DNA of 64,000 nt from Elusimicrobiaceae bacterium (GTDB lineage Bacteria > Elusimicrobiota > Elusimicrobia > Elusimicrobiales > Elusimicrobiaceae). The position numbers were made by a program, and so were the translations under genes. The notes under the pieces are model-generated. The model was not told the DNA's origin. It saw only the letters and a program-made list of their open reading frames with translations, and ran no database searches. Position 1 is the first letter of the stretch, and each line of letters opens with the position of its first letter. Shown in pieces: positions 30,178 through 37,945 of the stretch. The stretch covers positions 62,001-126,000 of the forward strand of contig JAGCWX010000028.1 in assembly GCA_017961585.1 (NCBI GenBank), in the 5' to 3' direction.

Positions 30178-30186
30178 TGCTATAAT
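30178..30186 (+). promoter_or_regulatory. Extended -10 promoter of the serine protease gene
   Basis: TGCTATAAT ends 6 nt before the ATG at 30193. The short AGGTTT between them is too close to serve as a normal ribosome site on a leadered mRNA, so a leaderless transcript is likely. Confidence 0.6.
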
Positions 30187-30192
30187 AGGTTT

Positions 30193-30951
30193 ATGAGAAA
30201 CTGGGTGGCGGGTATTTTATTAAGCAGTATCTTGTGCAATCCCGTTTTTGCACAGCATGATCACGTGCAAATTGCCCAGCAAAATATGCCCGCTGTAGTG
30301 GTGGTAAATGTACTAAAAAAAGACGGGGGCACCTTCTCCGGCACGGGCTTTATCCTCACGCAAGACGGGCTTATGGCAACCAGCCGCCACGTACTGGAAG
30401 ATGCACTCTACGTCAATGTTACCTTTAACAACGCTGTCGTTTCGGGGGAAGCCATCCCTTTGGCAGAGCAAGAAAATACCGATTTGGCCCTTTTAAAAAT
30501 CAGCGCACAGCACTTGCCCTACATTACTTTGGGGAATTCCGACACGGTCCGCCCGGGGCAAACCATTACCGTCATTGGGAATCCGCGCCGGCTGCAAAAT
30601 ACTGTTACTTCCGGCATTATCAGCCAAGTGCGCCAAAAAGAAGATCTGATTTGGCACCAAATCAGCGCGCCTATTTCCCCCAGCTCCAGCGGCAGCCCAA
30701 TCTTTGACGAAAACGGGAAAGTAATTTCTATTGCATTTGCCAGCATGGCCGGGGAAAACAACCAAAATTTGAACTTTGCTATCCCGGTAAATTATCTGCG
30801 GGAATTATTAACGGCCAATGGGTTTAGCGTGGAAGATCCCACACCCGAAGAGCCCACAAACCCGTTATGGAGACATTTGCAAAAGTCTTGGCAGATTTCA
30901 AAACGATTATTCACGCGGTGGTTTTCTAAACCGCAAACAGTTAACCCATAA
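30193..30951 (+). CDS. Trypsin-like serine protease (DegP/HtrA protease domain only)
   Basis: The 252-residue protein has a signal peptide (MRNWVAGILLSSILCNPVFA) and one trypsin-like domain. The triad is visible as His in ATSRHVLED, Asp in ENTDLALLKI and Ser in SSSGSPIFDENG. The last motif differs from the usual GNSGGP. No PDZ domain follows, only a short basic C-terminus. It is therefore shorter than DegP, DegQ or DegS and probably acts as a free periplasmic protease; substrates are unknown. It is followed 12 bp later by a large anchored protein with AGAGGAAA in the gap. It may be the first gene of an envelope cluster. Confidence 0.88.
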   Translation: MRNWVAGILLSSILCNPVFAQHDHVQIAQQNMPAVVVVNVLKKDGGTFSGTGFILTQDGLMATSRHVLEDALYVNVTFNNAVVSGEAIPLAEQENTDLALLKISAQHLPYITLGNSDTVRPGQTITVIGNPRRLQNTVTSGIISQVRQKEDLIWHQISAPISPSSSGSPIFDENGKVISIAFASMAGENNQNLNFAIPVNYLRELLTANGFSVEDPTPEEPTNPLWRHLQKSWQISKRLFTRWFSKPQTVNP

Positions 30952-30963
30952 AGAGGAAATTCT

Positions 30964-32907
30964 ATGAAAAAAACCATTCTAAAAGTTGCCTTTGTAGCTG
31001 CGTGTATTGCGGCAATTGTGTTTTTGCTGTTGCCTTTTTTGGAAACCACCCCGCCCGCTACCACGGATCTCAAATCGGTCCAACCCCAAGTGGACACTTC
31101 CGAAAATCCTTTGGCAACTATTGCCAAACGCCTCTCTTCGCTATTCGGGCGTAAAACCCGCGAAGGGAACAAAATAAATGCACCCCTTGCAAATACTTCT
31201 TCCGCCAATTCTCCGCTTCAATTGGCCTCGGCCCGCCACGCCGCTATGCCGGCTCAACGTACGGAAGCAACGGCCCAACCCGCTTCGCAAGCAGCTGCTA
31301 CCCAAACTATAGCCGTTCCCCCCGCGGATGTACAGGAAGAATATGGGAACGCCACCATTCAAACCGATGATGGCGAGTGGGTCCTCATCCGGCAAACTGC
31401 TCCGCAAAACAGCACCCCGGGCATGCATGAAGTAAACGTGCACGACAATCCTTACGATCGTTATGTAAAACAGGAACGCGCCCGCCGCTTAAGACCGGCC
31501 GCTCAACCGCAACAAGAAATACCGGACTCCAAATGGGCGCGGCTGATTCAACCGTTTAAAAATTTCTTCTTTATGCACCCGAAAGAAACTTCTAAACCTT
31601 CGCGCGAGGCCAAAGCACACTCCTTGGCACAAGACCGCGCCTTGCAATTGGCTTCGGCCAGGGACCGCCTTTCTGCCGCGCCGCGGGTGCCTACCGTGGA
31701 AAACACGCGCATCCCGCTGCCCAATATTACCTTGCAACAATGGGAAAGCATGACTGAAGAAGAACGCGAAAAAGCACGCGACCGCTATGCCGTGGAACAA
31801 TTTAAAGAAATGCTTTCGGGCGAGCATGCTGCTGATCAAGCCGCCAAAATCGCCGCGGATGCCAAATACCCAAATCCAAAAACAGAACAACAAAAACAAG
31901 AAAAAGCCACTTACACCCAAAAATTAAGTGACAAAGCCAAAGCGGAAATCAAACAACGTCTTTTTGCCGACCTGGAGGCCAAGGCCTCTCAGCAAGAAGC
32001 CGTGGACGAATTGATGGGCATGGGCTGCAAGAATACCTCCCTACCCACTCCGCCCGCGAATGATTACTGCGAGGCCCCCGGTGCCACAACCGGGACTACC
32101 CCCAAGGAAGTGATCGCCCAACAAAAAGTACTTAACGCACAACAGTTTTTTGAATTAACCCATTATAAAGTTACTGCGGAACCCCCCATCACCAATGTGT
32201 TGAGCCCTACCACCCGGCAAACCATTGAACACATCGCAGAAAATTCTTCCGACTCCCAAATGGCCGAAGTATTTCAATTTCTCTATGAGTATCAAAATTG
32301 CGAGAAGGAAACCTGCTACCCCGTGGCAAACGCCAATCCAAGATACCCCCAAATGCCCGACGCGGTAACTATGGCTAACGGCAAGCCCAACCCCGACCCA
32401 ATTGGCCTATACCCCACGCAAGAAGAACCTTTTGTTCAACACAAATTAGAACAATTTAAAGAACAAAATCCTCAAGCTACCGACGATCAACTCAAACAAG
32501 AGGAAGAAAAAGCACGGAAACAATTCCAGGAACATTCCCCAAGTTGGGTTTTTTATAGAGTTGAACACGCCAGGCAAGCATACGACGAAAACAAAACCAT
32601 TTTCTGCGGGAATGATAGGGTGGCTTATCAGCTGGGGCAAGACATTGATAGCCCTAACATCCTTGGGACAAGGCAGTCTTTAGTAGAAAGCAACGGCCCG
32701 GTGGAAGCCAGCCACCAAATGAATGAATCGGCGGCCCAAGACGTAAATGACGCCAACCGAACTAGACAAGATGTCCTCCGCCCCTTATACGTACAAGGGA
32801 CGGCCGACAACTTAAAACAAAACATCAAAGCAGCCATGAAAGGCAACGCGGTTTTGCAGGAGGCCACCCAGGATTTAAACAGCAAAGCAAATTCCGGGTC
32901 TAAATAA
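30964..32907 (+). CDS. Large anchored or secreted protein of unknown function
   Basis: I recognise no family in this 647-residue protein. The N-terminus MKKTILKVAFVAACIAAIVF is a membrane anchor or signal without a lipobox. Residues 30-230 are Ala/Pro/Gln-rich and low in complexity. The rest is charged, Lys/Gln/Glu-rich and helical (EQFKEMLSGEHAADQAAKIA). A motif is found twice: LQLASARHAAMPAQR near residue 80 and LQLASARDRLSAAPR near 223. Several Cys pairs (CKNTSL ... DYCEAPG, and NCEKETCYP) suggest disulfides and a periplasmic location. It lies between a serine protease and a lipoprotein operon, so a cell-envelope role is inferred. A ribosome site (GAGGAA) precedes the start. Confidence 0.65.
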   Translation: MKKTILKVAFVAACIAAIVFLLLPFLETTPPATTDLKSVQPQVDTSENPLATIAKRLSSLFGRKTREGNKINAPLANTSSANSPLQLASARHAAMPAQRTEATAQPASQAAATQTIAVPPADVQEEYGNATIQTDDGEWVLIRQTAPQNSTPGMHEVNVHDNPYDRYVKQERARRLRPAAQPQQEIPDSKWARLIQPFKNFFFMHPKETSKPSREAKAHSLAQDRALQLASARDRLSAAPRVPTVENTRIPLPNITLQQWESMTEEEREKARDRYAVEQFKEMLSGEHAADQAAKIAADAKYPNPKTEQQKQEKATYTQKLSDKAKAEIKQRLFADLEAKASQQEAVDELMGMGCKNTSLPTPPANDYCEAPGATTGTTPKEVIAQQKVLNAQQFFELTHYKVTAEPPITNVLSPTTRQTIEHIAENSSDSQMAEVFQFLYEYQNCEKETCYPVANANPRYPQMPDAVTMANGKPNPDPIGLYPTQEEPFVQHKLEQFKEQNPQATDDQLKQEEEKARKQFQEHSPSWVFYRVEHARQAYDENKTIFCGNDRVAYQLGQDIDSPNILGTRQSLVESNGPVEASHQMNESAAQDVNDANRTRQDVLRPLYVQGTADNLKQNIKAAMKGNAVLQEATQDLNSKANSGSK

Positions 32908-32912
32908 AGAGT

Positions 32913-32941
32913 TTGTTTTACCCACCAAAAATGGGTATAAT
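32913..32941 (+). promoter_or_regulatory. Promoter of the lipoprotein-barrel-TolC operon
   Basis: TTGTTT and TATAAT are separated by exactly 17 nt. The first gene starts 34 nt after the -10, with AGGAAGGAG as ribosome site. Confidence 0.65.
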
Positions 32942-32975
32942 GTACTAAACGCGCACGCGCAGGAAGGAGAAAAAT

Positions 32976-33530
32976 ATGAAAAAATACACCGTATGGGCAG
33001 GTTTAGTCCTTTGTATGGCATTAGCCGCCTGCCACAAACAAGTTGAATATGATCGCAACGACCCTAACCAAGATTATGAACGCTATTTAAATTCTCACGT
33101 ATTTGCCGCCTGTGAAGCCGTGGGGAAACCATATGCACGCTACTCGCTAGCAGATGTACTTAAAAAACCCTCCGGTGATAACCCCAATTATAAAATTACT
33201 TTTGTTAACGGCCCCTGCAGAGGTGCCACCGTTTGGACCACGGAAGTAATTACCAAAACTCAACCGGTAGAAGATGCTTCTTTAATTCCCACCGGCACGT
33301 TGGTGTTGCGCAATTTTGACAACCCCAAAGAACCCTTCAACAAAGAACTTACCGACCATTGGAACATTGGCGTAGTAACCAATACGGACCGCGCCAAAAA
33401 GGGCATCATTGAACTAGGTTTCCCGCGCGACCGCAACGACTTTTTCCCCGCGCGCGAAGGGGCTTACACACACAACGTACGCTACATCTTGCAACCCAAA
33501 GTAAAAGATGTTCGCCAATTTATAAATTAA
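32976..33530 (+). CDS. Lipoprotein of unknown function
   Basis: The 184-residue protein starts MKKYTVWAGLVLCMALAACH with lipobox LAAC, so it is lipidated and attached to a membrane. The mature part has two further Cys (CEAVGK and GPCRGATVW) that may be disulfide-bonded. It is predicted beta-rich toward the end (TGTLVLRNFDNP, NIGVVTNTDRAKKGIIELGF). I do not recognise a family. It is the first gene after a good promoter and is followed after 16 bp by a predicted outer membrane barrel protein, suggesting joint function. Confidence 0.7.
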   Translation: MKKYTVWAGLVLCMALAACHKQVEYDRNDPNQDYERYLNSHVFAACEAVGKPYARYSLADVLKKPSGDNPNYKITFVNGPCRGATVWTTEVITKTQPVEDASLIPTGTLVLRNFDNPKEPFNKELTDHWNIGVVTNTDRAKKGIIELGFPRDRNDFFPAREGAYTHNVRYILQPKVKDVRQFIN

Positions 33531-33546
33531 TTTGAGGAGAAACATA

Positions 33547-34287
33547 ATGAAATTTGCTCGCTTTTTACTAGTTTTATTTTCAGTTTTGTGCATCTCAACC
33601 GTAGCTTTGCACGCCGAAGAAGGAGACCCCATCTCCACCGAAACCATGATTCTTGATGTGCCCACCGCGGAGGTTTTAGACCGTTATCAGGCCTCTTTTT
33701 TGACACGCGTTTATGAACATGGCACCGTCATGGAAAGCATTGATTTTGGCGTCTATCCGCGCATCAATATCGGCGTAAGTTTGGCCGTTCATAACTGGAT
33801 TGGTTCTTCTCATTCCGTAAAAGTATTAGACCCGGATTTTCAAGCCAAATGGAAAGTGTATGACGGCAGCTTGTACTTGCCGGCTATTGCTATCGGTTAC
33901 GACGGCCGCCGCTACGGGTATGGCTATGATGAAGATACCCGCAAATATGTACGCTCCAAACATTACCTTGATCACCGCAAAGGCGGTTATGTTTCCTTAA
34001 CGCGGGAAATTTTTGTACCGGGTTTAACGCTAACCGGTGGGGCAAATATGTCCGACTTTGACTGGGAGGAATTTTATTTATTTACCGGGTTATATTACAA
34101 AATTATTCCGCAAATTAATTTACTTAGCGAGTGGGATAACATCCGCAACATCCGCGATTCTCGCTTGAACTTAGGGGCCCGTTTTTATCTGCATCCTTCG
34201 TTGGCGTTGGATGTGGCAGTCCGTCGGGTAGGGCGCGGAACTGAAAATGAACGCATTTTACAACTGCGCTACGTAACTACATTTTAA
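33547..34287 (+). CDS. Predicted outer membrane beta-barrel protein
   Basis: The 246-residue product begins MKFARFLLVLFSVLCISTVA, a signal peptide likely cleaved after HAE or ALHA. The mature chain alternates aromatic and polar residues (IDFGVYPRINIGVSLAVHNW, YLPAIAIGYDGRRYGYGYDE, ARFYLHPSLALDVAVRR). It ends with the outer membrane type C-terminal Phe (RYVTTF). This suggests a small barrel of 8-12 strands. No specific family is recognised. The start is chosen for GAGGAG 8 nt upstream; an earlier ATG five codons before lies on the ribosome site. Neighbours (lipoprotein, HAMP protein, TolC) suggest an export or envelope-sensing unit. Confidence 0.7.
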   Translation: MKFARFLLVLFSVLCISTVALHAEEGDPISTETMILDVPTAEVLDRYQASFLTRVYEHGTVMESIDFGVYPRINIGVSLAVHNWIGSSHSVKVLDPDFQAKWKVYDGSLYLPAIAIGYDGRRYGYGYDEDTRKYVRSKHYLDHRKGGYVSLTREIFVPGLTLTGGANMSDFDWEEFYLFTGLYYKIIPQINLLSEWDNIRNIRDSRLNLGARFYLHPSLALDVAVRRVGRGTENERILQLRYVTTF

Positions 34288-34295
34288 GAGGGATT

Positions 34296-34742
34296 ATGAC
34301 CCAACCAAAAACCAGTTTCCAACGTCGTACTATTTTTATTAAAAAAGGGCTACAGCTGCGTTACATGTTGCTTATTACTGTAAGCGTACTGTGCGGGCTA
34401 GCTATCATGGCGTTGGAATTGACCGCTACGCTAAACGACTTGTTTGATGCCTACCCGGTGCTGGTACAACCCATTTACGACGAATTCATCCCCATCATAT
34501 CCAGCTTTTTCTACAAAATTTCTATTTACATATTGTTTGTAATTATTATCTCAGCAATTTTGTCACACAAAATGGCGGGGCCGGTTTATCGTTTTGAACA
34601 AACCTGCAAAGCCATTGCCAAAGGGGATTTTTCCCAGCGGGTCCATTTGCGCAAAGGGGACCGCTTGCAAGAATTACAAGAAGAGTTTAATAAAATGATG
34701 GATGTGGTGGAAGAACGTATTAAAAATAAGCCCCAGTCTTAA
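34296..34742 (+). CDS. HAMP-domain membrane protein without output domain
   Basis: This 148-residue protein has two membrane helices (about 20-45 and 72-92) separated by a short periplasmic loop of some 25 residues. The second is followed by a HAMP domain (SHKMAGPVYRFEQTCKAIAK ... LQELQEEFNKMMDVVEERI). HAMP domains usually pass signals to kinase, cyclase or chemotaxis domains, but none follows here; the protein ends in KNKPQS. It may signal through an unlinked partner or serve as a scaffold. It sits between a barrel gene and a TolC-type gene, 2 bp before the latter. AGAGGG precedes the ATG. Confidence 0.85.
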   Translation: MTQPKTSFQRRTIFIKKGLQLRYMLLITVSVLCGLAIMALELTATLNDLFDAYPVLVQPIYDEFIPIISSFFYKISIYILFVIIISAILSHKMAGPVYRFEQTCKAIAKGDFSQRVHLRKGDRLQELQEEFNKMMDVVEERIKNKPQS

Positions 34743-34744
34743 TT

Positions 34745-36034
34745 ATGAAAAAAATATTTTTATTAGCCATCGTACTTAATGTTTGTGTAGTTGCCAATGC
34801 CCAAAGCAACTATGGGCTGAATTTTTCAAGTCTTAGAAATAGCAACCTCACCCTTGAAAACGCCATCCGCTTAGGGCTTGAAAACAATTCCGATTTTTTA
34901 ACCGCACGTCAAGAAATTGTAATAGCCGAACAAAAACTTAGCGAGGCCAAATTTCGCTATTTGCCTCAATTTGCTTTGCAGGGAACGGCTTCTTTATACG
35001 ATGCGGATTCTCCCATGCTCCTGCCGGATATTGCCACGAATCGTCTTCTACCCCCTACCCATACTACTGACAAAAACAGTTACTACGGGGTGGGCGTAAG
35101 TGCTACGCAATATATTTATTCCGGTGGGCGTATCAACGGGGCTCTTAAAGCCGCCCGCGCTAATTTAAAACAAGCACAAAGCCGCTACGAAGCCGTTAAA
35201 AATGCCGTAGTATTGGATATTAAAAAATCGTTTGCGCGCTTGTTGGCCGCGCAAGAAAACGTAGCTTTAACCCAACAAGTATGGGAACAAGTTTCCCGCT
35301 GGTCCATTTCCAGCGATACCTGGACCAAAATCCGTCAAAAAGCACTTCTTGCGCAATTACAGGCCCGCTATAACGAAGCCGAATATGAACTTACCAATGC
35401 ACGCTTGGCTATGCTGGTAAGCTTAAACAAAGAAACCAATGCCCCCCTTACCATTTCTGCGCAAATGCAACCGGTTGCCGTAAATGAAGATTTACCCCAT
35501 TTCCAACTTTGGGCCACGGAATTCCGCCCCGAAATTAAATCTGCTATTTATGCTTTGGAATTGGATAATATTGCCATTGATTTGGCCCTTTCTAAACGCT
35601 ATCCCGATATTTTGCTTAATGCTTCCTACGAGCGGGTAGGCGATTCGGACTTGTCCGACGAAAACAAACAAGTTTCGTTAGCCATCCGTTTGCCTATTCC
35701 GTATACGTTTTCACAACAAATCAATCAAAAAAAGGCCGAACAACGCAAAAGCACTTTGCGCCGCGCGGCCCTGGAAGACCAAATCCACACGCAGGTAACC
35801 GCCAGTTTTCAAAAAATGACTTTTTGGCAAACGGAAGTATTGCAACGCCAAAAAACTTTTGAGGACTTGGATAAATTGGTAAAACAGGCCCTTAAATATT
35901 CTTCCAAAGCGGGGATTTCCGGGCTGGAAGCTCTCCGTGATTATGTGCAAACCGGCCAAGATTACTTGCAAGCCCTGCGCGAAAATCATACCGCAAAAGC
36001 CGAGCTGGAATGGGCCATCGGCAAGGATCTATAA
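34745..36034 (+). CDS. TolC-family outer membrane efflux protein
   Basis: The 429-residue protein has a signal peptide (MKKIFLLAIVLNVCVVANA) and the two-repeat OEP structure of TolC. Repeat one has LTLENAIRLGLENNSDFLTA, SEAKFRYLPQFALQ and VSATQYIYSGGRINGALKAA. Repeat two has EFRPEIKSAIYALELDNIAI, LSKRYPDILLNASYER and LEALRDYVQTGQDYLQAL. It forms an outer membrane and periplasmic channel for efflux or secretion. No adjacent membrane fusion protein or pump is found, so the partner inner membrane exporter must be elsewhere. It is 2 bp after the HAMP gene, and its stop overlaps the patatin start (TAATG). Confidence 0.92.
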   Translation: MKKIFLLAIVLNVCVVANAQSNYGLNFSSLRNSNLTLENAIRLGLENNSDFLTARQEIVIAEQKLSEAKFRYLPQFALQGTASLYDADSPMLLPDIATNRLLPPTHTTDKNSYYGVGVSATQYIYSGGRINGALKAARANLKQAQSRYEAVKNAVVLDIKKSFARLLAAQENVALTQQVWEQVSRWSISSDTWTKIRQKALLAQLQARYNEAEYELTNARLAMLVSLNKETNAPLTISAQMQPVAVNEDLPHFQLWATEFRPEIKSAIYALELDNIAIDLALSKRYPDILLNASYERVGDSDLSDENKQVSLAIRLPIPYTFSQQINQKKAEQRKSTLRRAALEDQIHTQVTASFQKMTFWQTEVLQRQKTFEDLDKLVKQALKYSSKAGISGLEALRDYVQTGQDYLQALRENHTAKAELEWAIGKDL

Positions 36035-36990
36035 TGCCCCGCCCGTGGCGGATTTTTTCAACATTGTTATGCGGGCTGCTTACGCTGCCCGCGTTAGCCA
36101 TTACCCCCCAAAGCGAAGACGAAATGTTGCGCGATTTTATGTGGCAACGTTTCATTCAATTACCTAGAAGTGAACGCCCGCAAATTGGGCTGGCACTTTC
36201 GGCCGGCGGCGTACGCGGATTTGCGCACGTGGGTGTGTTGGAAGTGTTTGATAATGCCGGGCTACCCATTGACCGTTTGGCAGGTACATCTATGGGATCG
36301 GTGGTGGGCGGATTTTATGCAGCCGGGCTCCCCATTGAACGACTTTGGGAAATCGGGGAGCAGATTACTCTTAGCAACATCACCCCGGATTTTAACGTAA
36401 TGGGGTTGTTCCGTGTTTTATTTGAACGCAAGCTTCCTACCTCTTCCAATTTGGCTAAATTTTTTGAAGAACAACTGGGGGATATTCAATTTGAAGAATT
36501 GGAGATTCCCTTTTCCTGCTCGGCTATGGATGTAAAAACCGGCGAACAGGTGCTGTTTAATTCCGGCCCGTTGGCCATTGCCGTGCGCGCTAGCATGAAT
36601 TTGCCCGGCGTATTTGAACCGGTAGAATATCGGCATCGCGCGTTGGTGGACGGAGCCGTGGTAGATTATTTACCTGTTGATTCCGTAAGAAATATGGGGG
36701 CAGATTACGTGATTGCCTCCGTCACTCCCCTTGATTTTTCTTCCAAAACCCCCACCTCTATTTTGGGGTACGTCAACCGTGTTAACGACGTGCGCGCCGC
36801 TGCCATGATTGAAGATTCGGCAAAGCAAGCCAACTTTGTACTTACAAACCGCGTGTTGGATATAGGAACTTTGGAACTTAAAAAACTTCACCAAGCCGGT
36901 GAAGTGGGCGTAAAGGAAGCATTTAAACATTTAGGAGAATTGCAAGAAGATATCTTGTTGCAGTCAGTGCCCTATGTATTTAAAAAATAA
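36034..36990 (+). CDS. Patatin-like phospholipase, exported
   Basis: The 318-residue protein begins with a probable signal peptide (PRPWRIFSTLLCGLLTLPALA). The patatin domain has the oxyanion glycine loop (LALSAGGVRGFAHVGVLEVF), the nucleophile elbow GTSMGS with catalytic Ser, and VDGAVVDYLPVDS with the catalytic Asp (DGA). It is related to RssA/NTE-type lipases that hydrolyse phospholipid acyl esters, but the signal peptide places it in the periplasm. The ATG at 36034 shares a base with the TolC stop, implying translational coupling. It overlaps the next TPR lipoprotein gene by 17 nt. Confidence 0.9.
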   Translation: MPRPWRIFSTLLCGLLTLPALAITPQSEDEMLRDFMWQRFIQLPRSERPQIGLALSAGGVRGFAHVGVLEVFDNAGLPIDRLAGTSMGSVVGGFYAAGLPIERLWEIGEQITLSNITPDFNVMGLFRVLFERKLPTSSNLAKFFEEQLGDIQFEELEIPFSCSAMDVKTGEQVLFNSGPLAIAVRASMNLPGVFEPVEYRHRALVDGAVVDYLPVDSVRNMGADYVIASVTPLDFSSKTPTSILGYVNRVNDVRAAAMIEDSAKQANFVLTNRVLDIGTLELKKLHQAGEVGVKEAFKHLGELQEDILLQSVPYVFKK

Positions 36991-37945
36991 ACTTTTGTGC
37001 TTATTGGGATGTACCGCTTTATTTTTAAGTGGGTGTTCTACCGGTTTCCTGGGGTTAGCCCCGTTGGGCGACCGGAAAGAATATGTTCGCGCCCGCAATT
37101 TATATAACGAGCAACAATACCAACAAGCCGCCAATGAACTTACCCAGTATATTTACAAAGCGGGCAACGTGAAACGCCGCGAAGCCCGTGCTTATCGTTT
37201 ATTGGGGATGAGCTACGAACAATTAGGGCAACTAGATAAAGCACTGGAAGTATATTTGGAAGCATTAGAATTTCACCCTAAAAATGTACCGTTGTTGGTG
37301 GCCGCTGCTGAATTGTACCAAAAAGCCGGCTTGGTGGACCGTTCGCAAGAGTTGTTTGACCGCGCCCAGGAAGAGGACCCGCACAACGCAGAAGCTCTCA
37401 CCGGCCAGGCCGAGAATTACCGCTCGTTTGGGTTTTACTCCAAAGCCCGTACATACTACGATCAATTTTTTGAACTCAACCCGCAAGCCGATCCCGTTTA
37501 CCGGGCACGGTATGCTTCCACCTTCTTGAACCAACGCAATTATGAACAGGCCTTCATTCATATTACCATGGCGTTGGCGCAAGATAACTCCGTGCCAGAT
37601 TATTGGTTAATTAGCTCCAAAGCAGCTTTTGGTTTGGGCAACTACAAGCAAGCCCTGGCCGATTTAGATACCGCTTTGCACCTAGCCCCCGAACGGGCCG
37701 ATTTGCACCTCTACAAAATTATGGGCCTATATCAGCGTGGTTTATATACGCAGTCGCTACAAGAAACCCGCCAATTTTTAACTTCCCGCCCCAAAGATCC
37801 TCTCGCCTTGTTGTTTGCGGCTTTAAATGAATGGGAATTAGGGCAAAAAAAGACGGCCCGTTTTCACTTAAAACAAGCCGCCGAAATAAACCCGGATAGT
37901 TTTGTCGGCCAAGTGGCTACAAAACTGGCGCAAGAGTGGAAATAA
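36974..37945 (+). CDS. TPR-repeat lipoprotein
   Basis: The 323-residue protein starts MYLKNKLLCLLGCTALFLSG with lipobox LSGC, so it is a lipoprotein. The mature part is a chain of about seven tetratricopeptide repeats, such as REARAYRLLGMSYEQLGQLD (KALEVYLEALEFHPKN follows), PLLVAAAELYQKAGLVDRSQ, and KQALADLDTALHLAPERADL. TPR lipoproteins act as assembly scaffolds, for example PilF/PilW in type IV pili or BamD in the outer membrane; no closer assignment is possible. It starts inside the patatin gene (17-nt overlap) and ends the envelope operon, tail to tail with a short pilin gene 2 bp away. Confidence 0.85.
   Translation: MYLKNKLLCLLGCTALFLSGCSTGFLGLAPLGDRKEYVRARNLYNEQQYQQAANELTQYIYKAGNVKRREARAYRLLGMSYEQLGQLDKALEVYLEALEFHPKNVPLLVAAAELYQKAGLVDRSQELFDRAQEEDPHNAEALTGQAENYRSFGFYSKARTYYDQFFELNPQADPVYRARYASTFLNQRNYEQAFIHITMALAQDNSVPDYWLISSKAAFGLGNYKQALADLDTALHLAPERADLHLYKIMGLYQRGLYTQSLQETRQFLTSRPKDPLALLFAALNEWELGQKKTARFHLKQAAEINPDSFVGQVATKLAQEWK

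What the first reader, a model, noticed from the sequence alone, without database searches (positions are those of the whole stretch)
30193..37945. Possible uncharacterised envelope system: protease, anchored protein, lipoproteins, barrel, HAMP, TolC, patatin, TPR
Eight same-strand genes lie with small gaps or overlaps: a PDZ-less serine protease, an unknown 647-residue anchored protein, a lipoprotein, a small barrel, a HAMP-only protein, TolC, an exported patatin and a TPR lipoprotein. The last six follow one good promoter (32913-32941). TolC with a patatin whose start overlaps its stop suggests a secretion or lipid-handling unit, but no exporter ATPase or fusion protein is included.
Basis: inference. 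Interest (0 to 1): 0.55.

Follow-up and report, generated by a model that had tools for sequence, protein, structure and literature searches.

The report
Pump-less TolC paired with phospholipase
A gut bacterium of the phylum Elusimicrobiota carries, side by side and as do most of its relatives in the phylum, an outer-membrane tube protein of the drug-pump type that has no pump beside it and an exported fat-cutting enzyme, which points to an undescribed way of maintaining the outer membrane.

Summary
The eight genes are real and in the stated order, but they are not one system. The last six genes form one tight unit with its own conserved promoter; the protease has another. Wider comparison shrinks the unit to its heart: TolC, then patatin, then TPR.

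Over 198 Elusimicrobiota genomes this TolC matched in 153 and a patatin in 162; all 153 TolC genomes also have a patatin match. In 139 of 141 genomes with both rows listed, TolC lies directly before patatin on the same strand. In more distant families and classes the pair sits elsewhere, usually beside arginine and lysine/DAP genes, and a TPR gene follows in 15 of 16 loci read. One sister genus lacks all three at the locus.

Of five TolC genes in the genome, this is the only one without a pump beside it. As a group, the patatin-linked TolCs have shortened pump-facing hairpins; the window's protein is only mildly altered. The patatin resembles PlpD, whose lipase domain stays in the periplasm and affects membrane lipids. 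I propose a two-protein counterpart of PlpD for outer-membrane lipid upkeep. The pairing is well shown; docking and function are inferred.

The parts
30193..30951 (+). exported trypsin-like (HtrA-type) serine protease without PDZ domain; upstream neighbour with its own conserved -10 box, not core
   Evidence: Trypsin_2 E 9.5e-28; present in 20 of 20 genus loci, not found at the 20 sister-family loci; box before it in 20 of 20
30964..32907 (+). 647-aa N-terminally anchored protein of unknown family, fast-evolving (19-29% identity to 20 genus relatives); not core
   Evidence: no Pfam family; alignment A7; one match in own genome
32913..32941 (+). promoter of the six-gene unit (TTGTTT-17-TATAAT)
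   Evidence: sequence; -10 box before the lipoprotein gene in 20 of 20 genus loci, with controls
32976..33530 (+). lipoprotein predicted to fold as a tandem Tudor/Agenet-like protein; family-level addition
   Evidence: lipobox; model pLDDT 90.7; Foldseek top hits tandem Agenet/Tudor, TM about 0.4-0.56; found in genera g1, g12, g13, g14
33547..34287 (+). small outer-membrane beta-barrel, phylum-wide, separate from TolC-patatin in other classes
   Evidence: 183 of 198 phylum genomes; model pLDDT 68.9, about 12 strands, VIA-align Z about 18 to KdgM and FapF
34296..34742 (+). two-helix membrane protein with HAMP domain and no output domain; class-level neighbour of TolC
   Evidence: HAMP 23.4 bits, cut-off 25; alignment A2; family matched in 153 of 198 genomes, up to 10 matches each
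34745..36034 (+). TolC-family outer-membrane protein without a linked pump; first half of the conserved pair
   Evidence: OEP E 2.6e-35, two stretches; compared with pump-linked paralogues
36034..36990 (+). exported patatin-like phospholipase (Ser-Asp dyad), PlpD-like domain without Omp85 barrel; second half of the conserved pair
   Evidence: Patatin E 2e-31; PlpD 5fqu E 2e-53; GTSMG and DG invariant in 14 of 14 aligned
36974..37945 (+). exported TPR protein (lipoprotein in the window), third member of the conserved unit
   Evidence: TPR_2 E 2.3e-22; overlaps patatin by 17 bases; follows patatin in 40 of 40 genus and sister-family loci and 15 of 16 distant loci

Best explanation
The functional core is a three-gene unit, TolC-patatin-TPR, found in most families of the phylum and here in one unit with a lipoprotein, a small barrel and a HAMP protein. 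The patatin is exported by Sec into the periplasm and hydrolyses membrane phospholipids or lysophospholipids with its Ser-Asp dyad. The TolC-like trimer sits in the outer membrane; in this branch its periplasmic hairpins are shortened and the first-repeat tip that canonical TolCs share is lost. Instead of serving a drug pump it would hold the patatin against the inner leaflet of the outer membrane, or offer an exit for released acyl chains. The TPR protein would act as adaptor. This would be a two-chain counterpart of PlpD, whose patatin domain is fused to an outer-membrane barrel and affects membrane lipids. Shown: gene linkage, joint absence, no linked pump found, group-wide hairpin change, conserved catalytic residues, hydrophobic export-type N-termini. 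Inferred: lipid substrate, physical docking, role of TPR, exit of products.
For: Linkage: 139 of 141 genomes with both rows listed have TolC directly upstream of patatin, same strand, gap -4 to 391 bases. Co-occurrence over 198 genomes: 153 both, 9 patatin only, 0 TolC only, 36 neither (genomes are related, so these are not independent). Linkage survives relocation: at 16 loci from other families and classes (chosen because the pair is there) argG or argH stands nearby in 15, dapF in 11 and lysA in 9, instead of barrel-HAMP; TPR follows in 15. In both genomes of sister genus g3 no patatin and no orthologous TolC were found and TPR is not at the locus, while barrel, phosphofructokinase, HAMP and dapF stay. 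The other four TolC genes of the genome each sit beside a fusion protein and an RND or MacB pump. Hairpins: repeat 2 is 107-111 residues in 29 of 29 control TolCs against 79-108 (median 103.5) in 26 patatin-linked ones; repeat 1 median 144 against 137. First-repeat tip glycine column: 29 of 29 against 0 of 26. Patatin closest to PlpD by far (E 2e-53, next 6.6e-7); hydrophobic N-terminus in 39 of 40. PlpD: periplasmic lipase domain, lipids altered in the mutant (PMC11116518, sections read). No PldA (PLA1) match in the own genome.
Against: No enzymatic or binding data. The window's own TolC is only mildly shortened (135 against a control median of 144; 105 against 108) and keeps a recognisable second-repeat tip, GISGLEAL. 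A looser tip pattern is found in 5 (repeat 1) and 6 (repeat 2) of 26 patatin-linked proteins and is missing from 3 and 7 of 29 controls, so the tip test is not clean; the glycine column depends on where the alignment puts gaps. Only 5 of the 29 controls are known here to be pump-linked (4 own, E. coli); the other 24 are the best PF02321 matches of 12 genomes, which favours canonical proteins, and their neighbours were not checked. One review says mutagenesis of the TolC turn region did not disrupt pumping severely (PMC4446572, passages), so tip loss need not end pump use. No TPR was found after patatin in L212. Nine genomes have a patatin match without this TolC. Two MlaD-family places exist, so other lipid-transport routes are present.
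Confidence: 0.5

Rival explanations
1. The TolC is an ordinary outer-membrane factor that serves pumps or a type I exporter encoded elsewhere; the patatin beside it does an unrelated lipid job and is linked only by shared regulation.
For: Both OEP repeats are recognisable and E. coli TolC structures match the profile, weakly (E 2e-7). E. coli TolC itself is encoded away from most of its pumps (recalled). The window protein keeps a recognisable second-repeat tip.
Against: The other four TolC genes of this genome already have linked pumps. Hairpins are shortened, by up to about 29 residues in repeat 2 in distant orthologs. Pairing with patatin persists through relocation, and where one is missing the other usually is too.
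Confidence: 0.2
2. A secretion unit: the patatin leaves the cell through this TolC as a secreted lipase.
For: Tight coupling of a channel gene and an exported enzyme gene.
Against: Patatin has a hydrophobic Sec-type N-terminus (39 of 40), whereas TolC-dependent type I export uses no such signal (recalled). The own genome's fusion proteins, RND pumps and MacB permeases find no relative at 68 loci holding the pair or its flanks; its ABC ATPases find one in L048 and L050 only, on the other strand more than 6 kb from TolC. The nearest studied relative, PlpD, keeps its lipase domain in the periplasm (PMC11116518).
Confidence: 0.1
3. One reading: all eight genes form one dedicated envelope machine.
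For: Order kept in 20 of 20 genus loci.
Against: Separate conserved -10 boxes before gene one and gene three; protease and 647-aa protein not found at sister-family loci; barrel, HAMP and lipoprotein each have a different range.
Confidence: 0.08
4. Neutral linkage: the pair is simply stuck inside a slowly rearranging block of housekeeping genes (arg genes-TolC-patatin-TPR-lysA-dapF-dapA).
For: The distant block includes unrelated amino-acid genes that are also kept in order.
Against: In the window's genus dapF and dapA are not at the locus while TolC-patatin-TPR stays intact; 139 of 141 adjacency; in genus g3 the three are missing although dapF remains at the spot.
Confidence: 0.1

Closest known systems
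PlpD / FplA patatin-Omp85 proteins (PL-Omp85, formerly type Vd)
   Same: Patatin domain nearest to PlpD among solved structures (5fqu, E 2e-53), Ser-Asp dyad, exported, associated with an outer-membrane protein; PlpD's lipase domain is periplasmic and its loss alters lipids (PMC11116518).
   Different: Here the patatin is a separate 318-aa chain in which Pfam finds no POTRA or Omp85 barrel; the linked outer-membrane protein is TolC-like; a TPR protein is added.
TolC / outer-membrane factors of tripartite pumps and type I secretion
   Same: Two OEP repeats, export-type N-terminus, recognisable strand segments.
   Different: No linked fusion protein or pump found; helical hairpins shortened as a group; first-repeat tip lost.
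OMPLA (PldA) outer-membrane phospholipase
   Same: Proposed role, removal of phospholipids at the outer membrane.
   Different: Unrelated family; no PLA1 match in this genome.
RssA and NTE-type bacterial patatins
   Same: Patatin domain (RssA model E 9.3e-31, 107 bits against a cut-off of 272).
   Different: Exported, paired with TolC. Long patatins with a cyclic-nucleotide domain exist separately in relatives (two tested).
Af1503-type HAMP receptors without output domain (recalled)
   Same: Membrane helices plus HAMP and nothing after it.
   Different: Short family of its own in Elusimicrobiota, 1 to 10 matches per genome.

Membership tests
Tripartite-pump / type I outer-membrane factor (TolC) | two OEP repeats | tested here: met
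   PF02321 two stretches, 2.6e-35
Tripartite-pump / type I outer-membrane factor (TolC) | fusion protein and inner-membrane pump encoded alongside (not universal: E. coli tolC lacks it, recalled) | tested here: not met
   none among the ten window genes searched; no fusion-protein, RND or MacB relative at 68 relatives' loci; met for the other four TolC genes of the genome
Tripartite-pump / type I outer-membrane factor (TolC) | canonical helical hairpin length and glycine tips that face the fusion protein | tested here: inconclusive
   lengths differ clearly as groups and first-repeat tip glycine is 0 of 26 against 29 of 29, but looser tip patterns occur in 5 and 6 of 26, the window's second tip included
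PL-Omp85 (PlpD) | patatin domain of PlpD type with Ser-Asp dyad | tested here: met
   5fqu E 2e-53; GTSMG and DG invariant in 14 of 14
PL-Omp85 (PlpD) | POTRA and 16-stranded Omp85 barrel in the same chain | tested here: not met
   318-aa protein, only PF01734 found at E <= 0.01
PL-Omp85 (PlpD) | patatin domain in the periplasm, acting on cell phospholipids | not testable with these tools
   only a hydrophobic export-type N-terminus
OMPLA / PldA | PLA1 domain | tested here: not met
   no PF02253 match in the own genome
HAMP signal transducer | output domain after HAMP | tested here: not met
   148 aa, HAMP at 89-138, nothing recognised after it
KdgM/NanC-type 12-strand porin (barrel protein) | membership of the family beyond a shared barrel fold | tested here: inconclusive
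   fold similar, Z about 16-18, 6-11% identity, model pLDDT 68.9; no Pfam family reached its cut-off for the window protein

The most novel reading that the evidence does not exclude
A branch of the TolC family has left pumping and become the outer-membrane half of a phospholipase complex: patatin docks on the open periplasmic end of the shortened TolC trimer through the TPR protein and strips phospholipids from the outer membrane, sending products out through the tube. It would be a phylum-wide lipid-maintenance machine of Elusimicrobiota that does the job of PldA and PlpD.
Probability: 0.25. Interest if true: 0.75.

Novelty: new variant of a known kind. Interest (0 to 1): 0.55.

Why it matters
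TolC proteins are known as the exit ducts of drug pumps and toxin exporters. A TolC lineage kept through most of a phylum, without a linked pump and tied to an exported phospholipase, would show a second use of that fold and give a concrete, testable answer to how a little-studied outer-membrane phylum keeps its membrane lipids in order. It also gives a marker unit that was not found in at least five of the smallest genomes searched (0.6-0.8 Mb) and is kept in many others.

Tried and rejected
Rejected: one eight-gene unit (conserved boxes before gene one and gene three, larger gaps before gene three). Rejected: HAMP protein as a fixed partner of TolC-patatin (kept without them in genus g3, multi-copy elsewhere). 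Rejected: barrel as a fixed partner (apart from the pair in other classes). Rejected: the about 680-aa patatins of relatives as PlpD-type fusions; the two tested carry a cyclic-nucleotide-binding domain. Mended on checking: a first gene call missed the TPR gene in L203, L213 and L214; it is there.

Led nowhere: Pfam for the 647-aa protein and the lipoprotein; a first, too narrow tip pattern (found in 22 of 29 controls for repeat 1 and 6 of 29 for repeat 2). Paper searches for patatin+TolC+operon+outer membrane+phospholipase (13 papers), patatin+Elusimicrobi (2) and Elusimicrobi+TolC+outer membrane (4): by title and start of abstract none describes this pair; none of these was opened.

Selection to keep in mind: the 20 genus and 20 sister-family loci were fetched because they have the patatin (20 of 36 genus relatives and 20 of 22 sister-family genomes with a hit). 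The 16 distant loci were fetched because both genes had been found. The 24 control TolCs are the distinct ones of 30 loci of best PF02321 matches. In one search I used 150 patatin and 150 TolC rows copied from the listings, which the tool had cut.
Full report
What is there. The eight genes exist as described. From the lipoprotein to the TPR gene, gaps are 16, 8 and 2 bases, then a 1-base TAATG overlap between TolC and patatin and a 17-base overlap between patatin and TPR. The window lies in a 1.49-Mb genome in 36 contigs.

Gene order in the genus. In 20 of 20 genus loci the order protease, 647-aa protein, lipoprotein, barrel, HAMP, TolC, patatin, TPR is kept (L054 has a second copy of the 647-aa family). 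The patatin was found in 37 of 37 genus genomes, own included. Median gaps in the 20 loci are 15.5, 9, 2.5, -25 and -17 bases from lipoprotein to TPR, against 122 and 158 upstream (starts were chosen by median length, so single values are approximate). A TATAAT or TATACT box starts 38-73 bases before the lipoprotein gene in 20 of 20 (two loci had further partial matches). It also stands within 90 bases before the protease gene in 20 of 20, before the 647-aa gene in 1, barrel 2, HAMP 0, TolC 0, patatin 1 and TPR 0 of 20, and in 176 of 4068 blocks of 90 bases of these loci. The loci are related, so they are not independent trials.

Gene order in the sister family. At 20 loci of family f2 the order is dnaE, response regulator, barrel, phosphofructokinase, HAMP, TolC, patatin, TPR, dapF, dapA (names of the added genes recognised by eye). 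Not found: dnaE and barrel in L060 (contig end), response regulator in L060, L061, L071 and L077, phosphofructokinase in L060 and L077, dapA in L062 and L074. Protease, 647-aa protein and lipoprotein were not found at any of the 20. The two f2 genomes of genus g3 (G038, G053) have no patatin match, no TolC match at 1e-25 and no TPR gene between HAMP and dapF, but keep barrel, phosphofructokinase, HAMP and dapF. I read this as joint loss.

The phylum. The barrel matched in 183 of 198 genomes, once in each but one. At 18 loci of other same-family and same-class genomes outside f2 (L158-L175), HAMP, TolC and patatin accompany the barrel in 12 (7 of family f1, 4 of f7, 1 of f8; in L163 the patatin is cut by the contig end) and in none of the 6 from f3, f4, f5, f6 and f9. 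At 20 loci of other classes (L178-L197) no patatin stands near it and only one weak TolC match, on the other strand (L195, 23 bits). In 20 genomes searched for both genes, 17 have TolC next to patatin and 3 do not have the pair (G038, G053, and G105, which has a long patatin only). At the 16 distant loci read around the pair, argG was found in 14, argH in 11 (one or other in 15), argB and argD in 7 each, lysA in 9, dapF in 11 and dapA in 10 (clusters named from representatives, dapF and dapA by similarity to the f2 genes). A TPR gene follows patatin in 15 of 16: 12 and three more found on checking; L212 is the exception. Over 198 genomes patatin matched in 162 (E <= 1e-30) and TolC in 153 (E <= 1e-25). 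The nine with patatin only are G104, G105, G131, G146, G159, G175, G176, G199 and G211; none has TolC only. Of 141 genomes with both rows listed, 139 are adjacent. Of the two others, G170 is a contig break (a patatin fragment lies beside TolC in L163) and G068 has them on different contigs.

TolC without a pump. PF02321 finds five TolC genes in the genome, plus a match inside a fusion protein. Four stand in complete sets: fusion protein with MacB-type ABC transporter (contigs 7 and 23) or with AcrB-type RND pump (contigs 11 and 25). The window's is the only one without. When the fusion proteins, RND pumps, ABC ATPases and MacB permeases of this genome are compared with 68 relatives' loci, only an ABC ATPase on the other strand in L048 and L050, more than 6 kb from TolC, is found. 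An alignment of 29 controls (E. coli TolC, the four paralogues, 24 further TolCs from 12 genomes whose neighbours were not checked) against 26 patatin-linked proteins shows repeat-2 hairpins of 107-111 residues in the controls and 79-108 in the patatin-linked set, and repeat-1 of 138-163 against 118-140. At the aligned column the first-repeat tip glycine is present in 29 of 29 controls and 0 of 26, the second in 27 of 29 and 0 of 26; within two columns 1 and 4 of the 26 have a glycine, and the window's second tip still reads GISGLEAL. By a looser pattern the contrast is 26 and 22 of 29 against 5 and 6 of 26. So the change of the pump end is clear as a group trend, strong in distant orthologs and mild in the window. 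The tip of TolC is where fusion proteins such as MacA, AcrA and HlyD bind in the tip-to-tip model (PMC3391258, passages); how strictly is debated (PMC4446572, passages).

The patatin. GTSMG and the DG of the dyad are invariant in 14 of 14 aligned. The nearest solved structure is PlpD. The PlpD paper (abstract, and sections 9 and 10 read) reports that its lipase domain is periplasmic and that many phospholipids are raised in the deletion strain, and proposes outer-membrane lipid homeostasis. The own genome shows one match to the patatin profile, no PldA and two MlaD-family places.

Other members. The lipoprotein model (pLDDT 90.7) resembles tandem Tudor/Agenet domains, with modest TM-scores. 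The barrel model (pLDDT 68.9) is a generic barrel of about 12 strands. The 647-aa protein keeps conserved motifs, among them four invariant or nearly invariant Cys, but no family was found.

Judgement. Pairing of TolC and patatin as a functional unit: about 0.9. Lipid maintenance as its role: about 0.5. Physical docking: about 0.35. These are my estimates. Nothing on this pair turned up in the held papers by the searches named.

Noticed in passing
30179-30195: The protease gene has an extended -10-like TGCTATAAT ending six bases before its ATG, which would give a leaderless transcript; a TATAAT or TATACT box lies within 90 bases before this gene in 20 of 20 genus loci.
   Followed up: partly
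32976-33530: The lipoprotein is predicted with high confidence to fold like tandem Tudor/Agenet domains, a fold best known from chromatin readers, here on a lipoprotein.
   Followed up: partly
   Followed up: no
L203-L218: In other families and classes TolC-patatin-TPR usually sits between arginine (argB, argD, argG, argH) and lysine/DAP (lysA, dapF, dapA) genes.
   Followed up: yes
34296-34742: Short HAMP-only membrane proteins look like a multi-copy family in Elusimicrobiota (matches in 153 of 198 genomes, up to 10 per genome); their neighbours elsewhere were not read.
   Followed up: partly
33547-34287: The small barrel is a phylum-wide outer-membrane protein (183 of 198 genomes), with dnaE nearby in 15 of the 40 loci; it could serve as a phylum marker.
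   Followed up: partly
L169:15181-17226: Relatives of families f7 and f8 (L169, L170) carry a long patatin with a cyclic-nucleotide-binding domain, on the strand opposite to dnaE and near it.
   Followed up: partly
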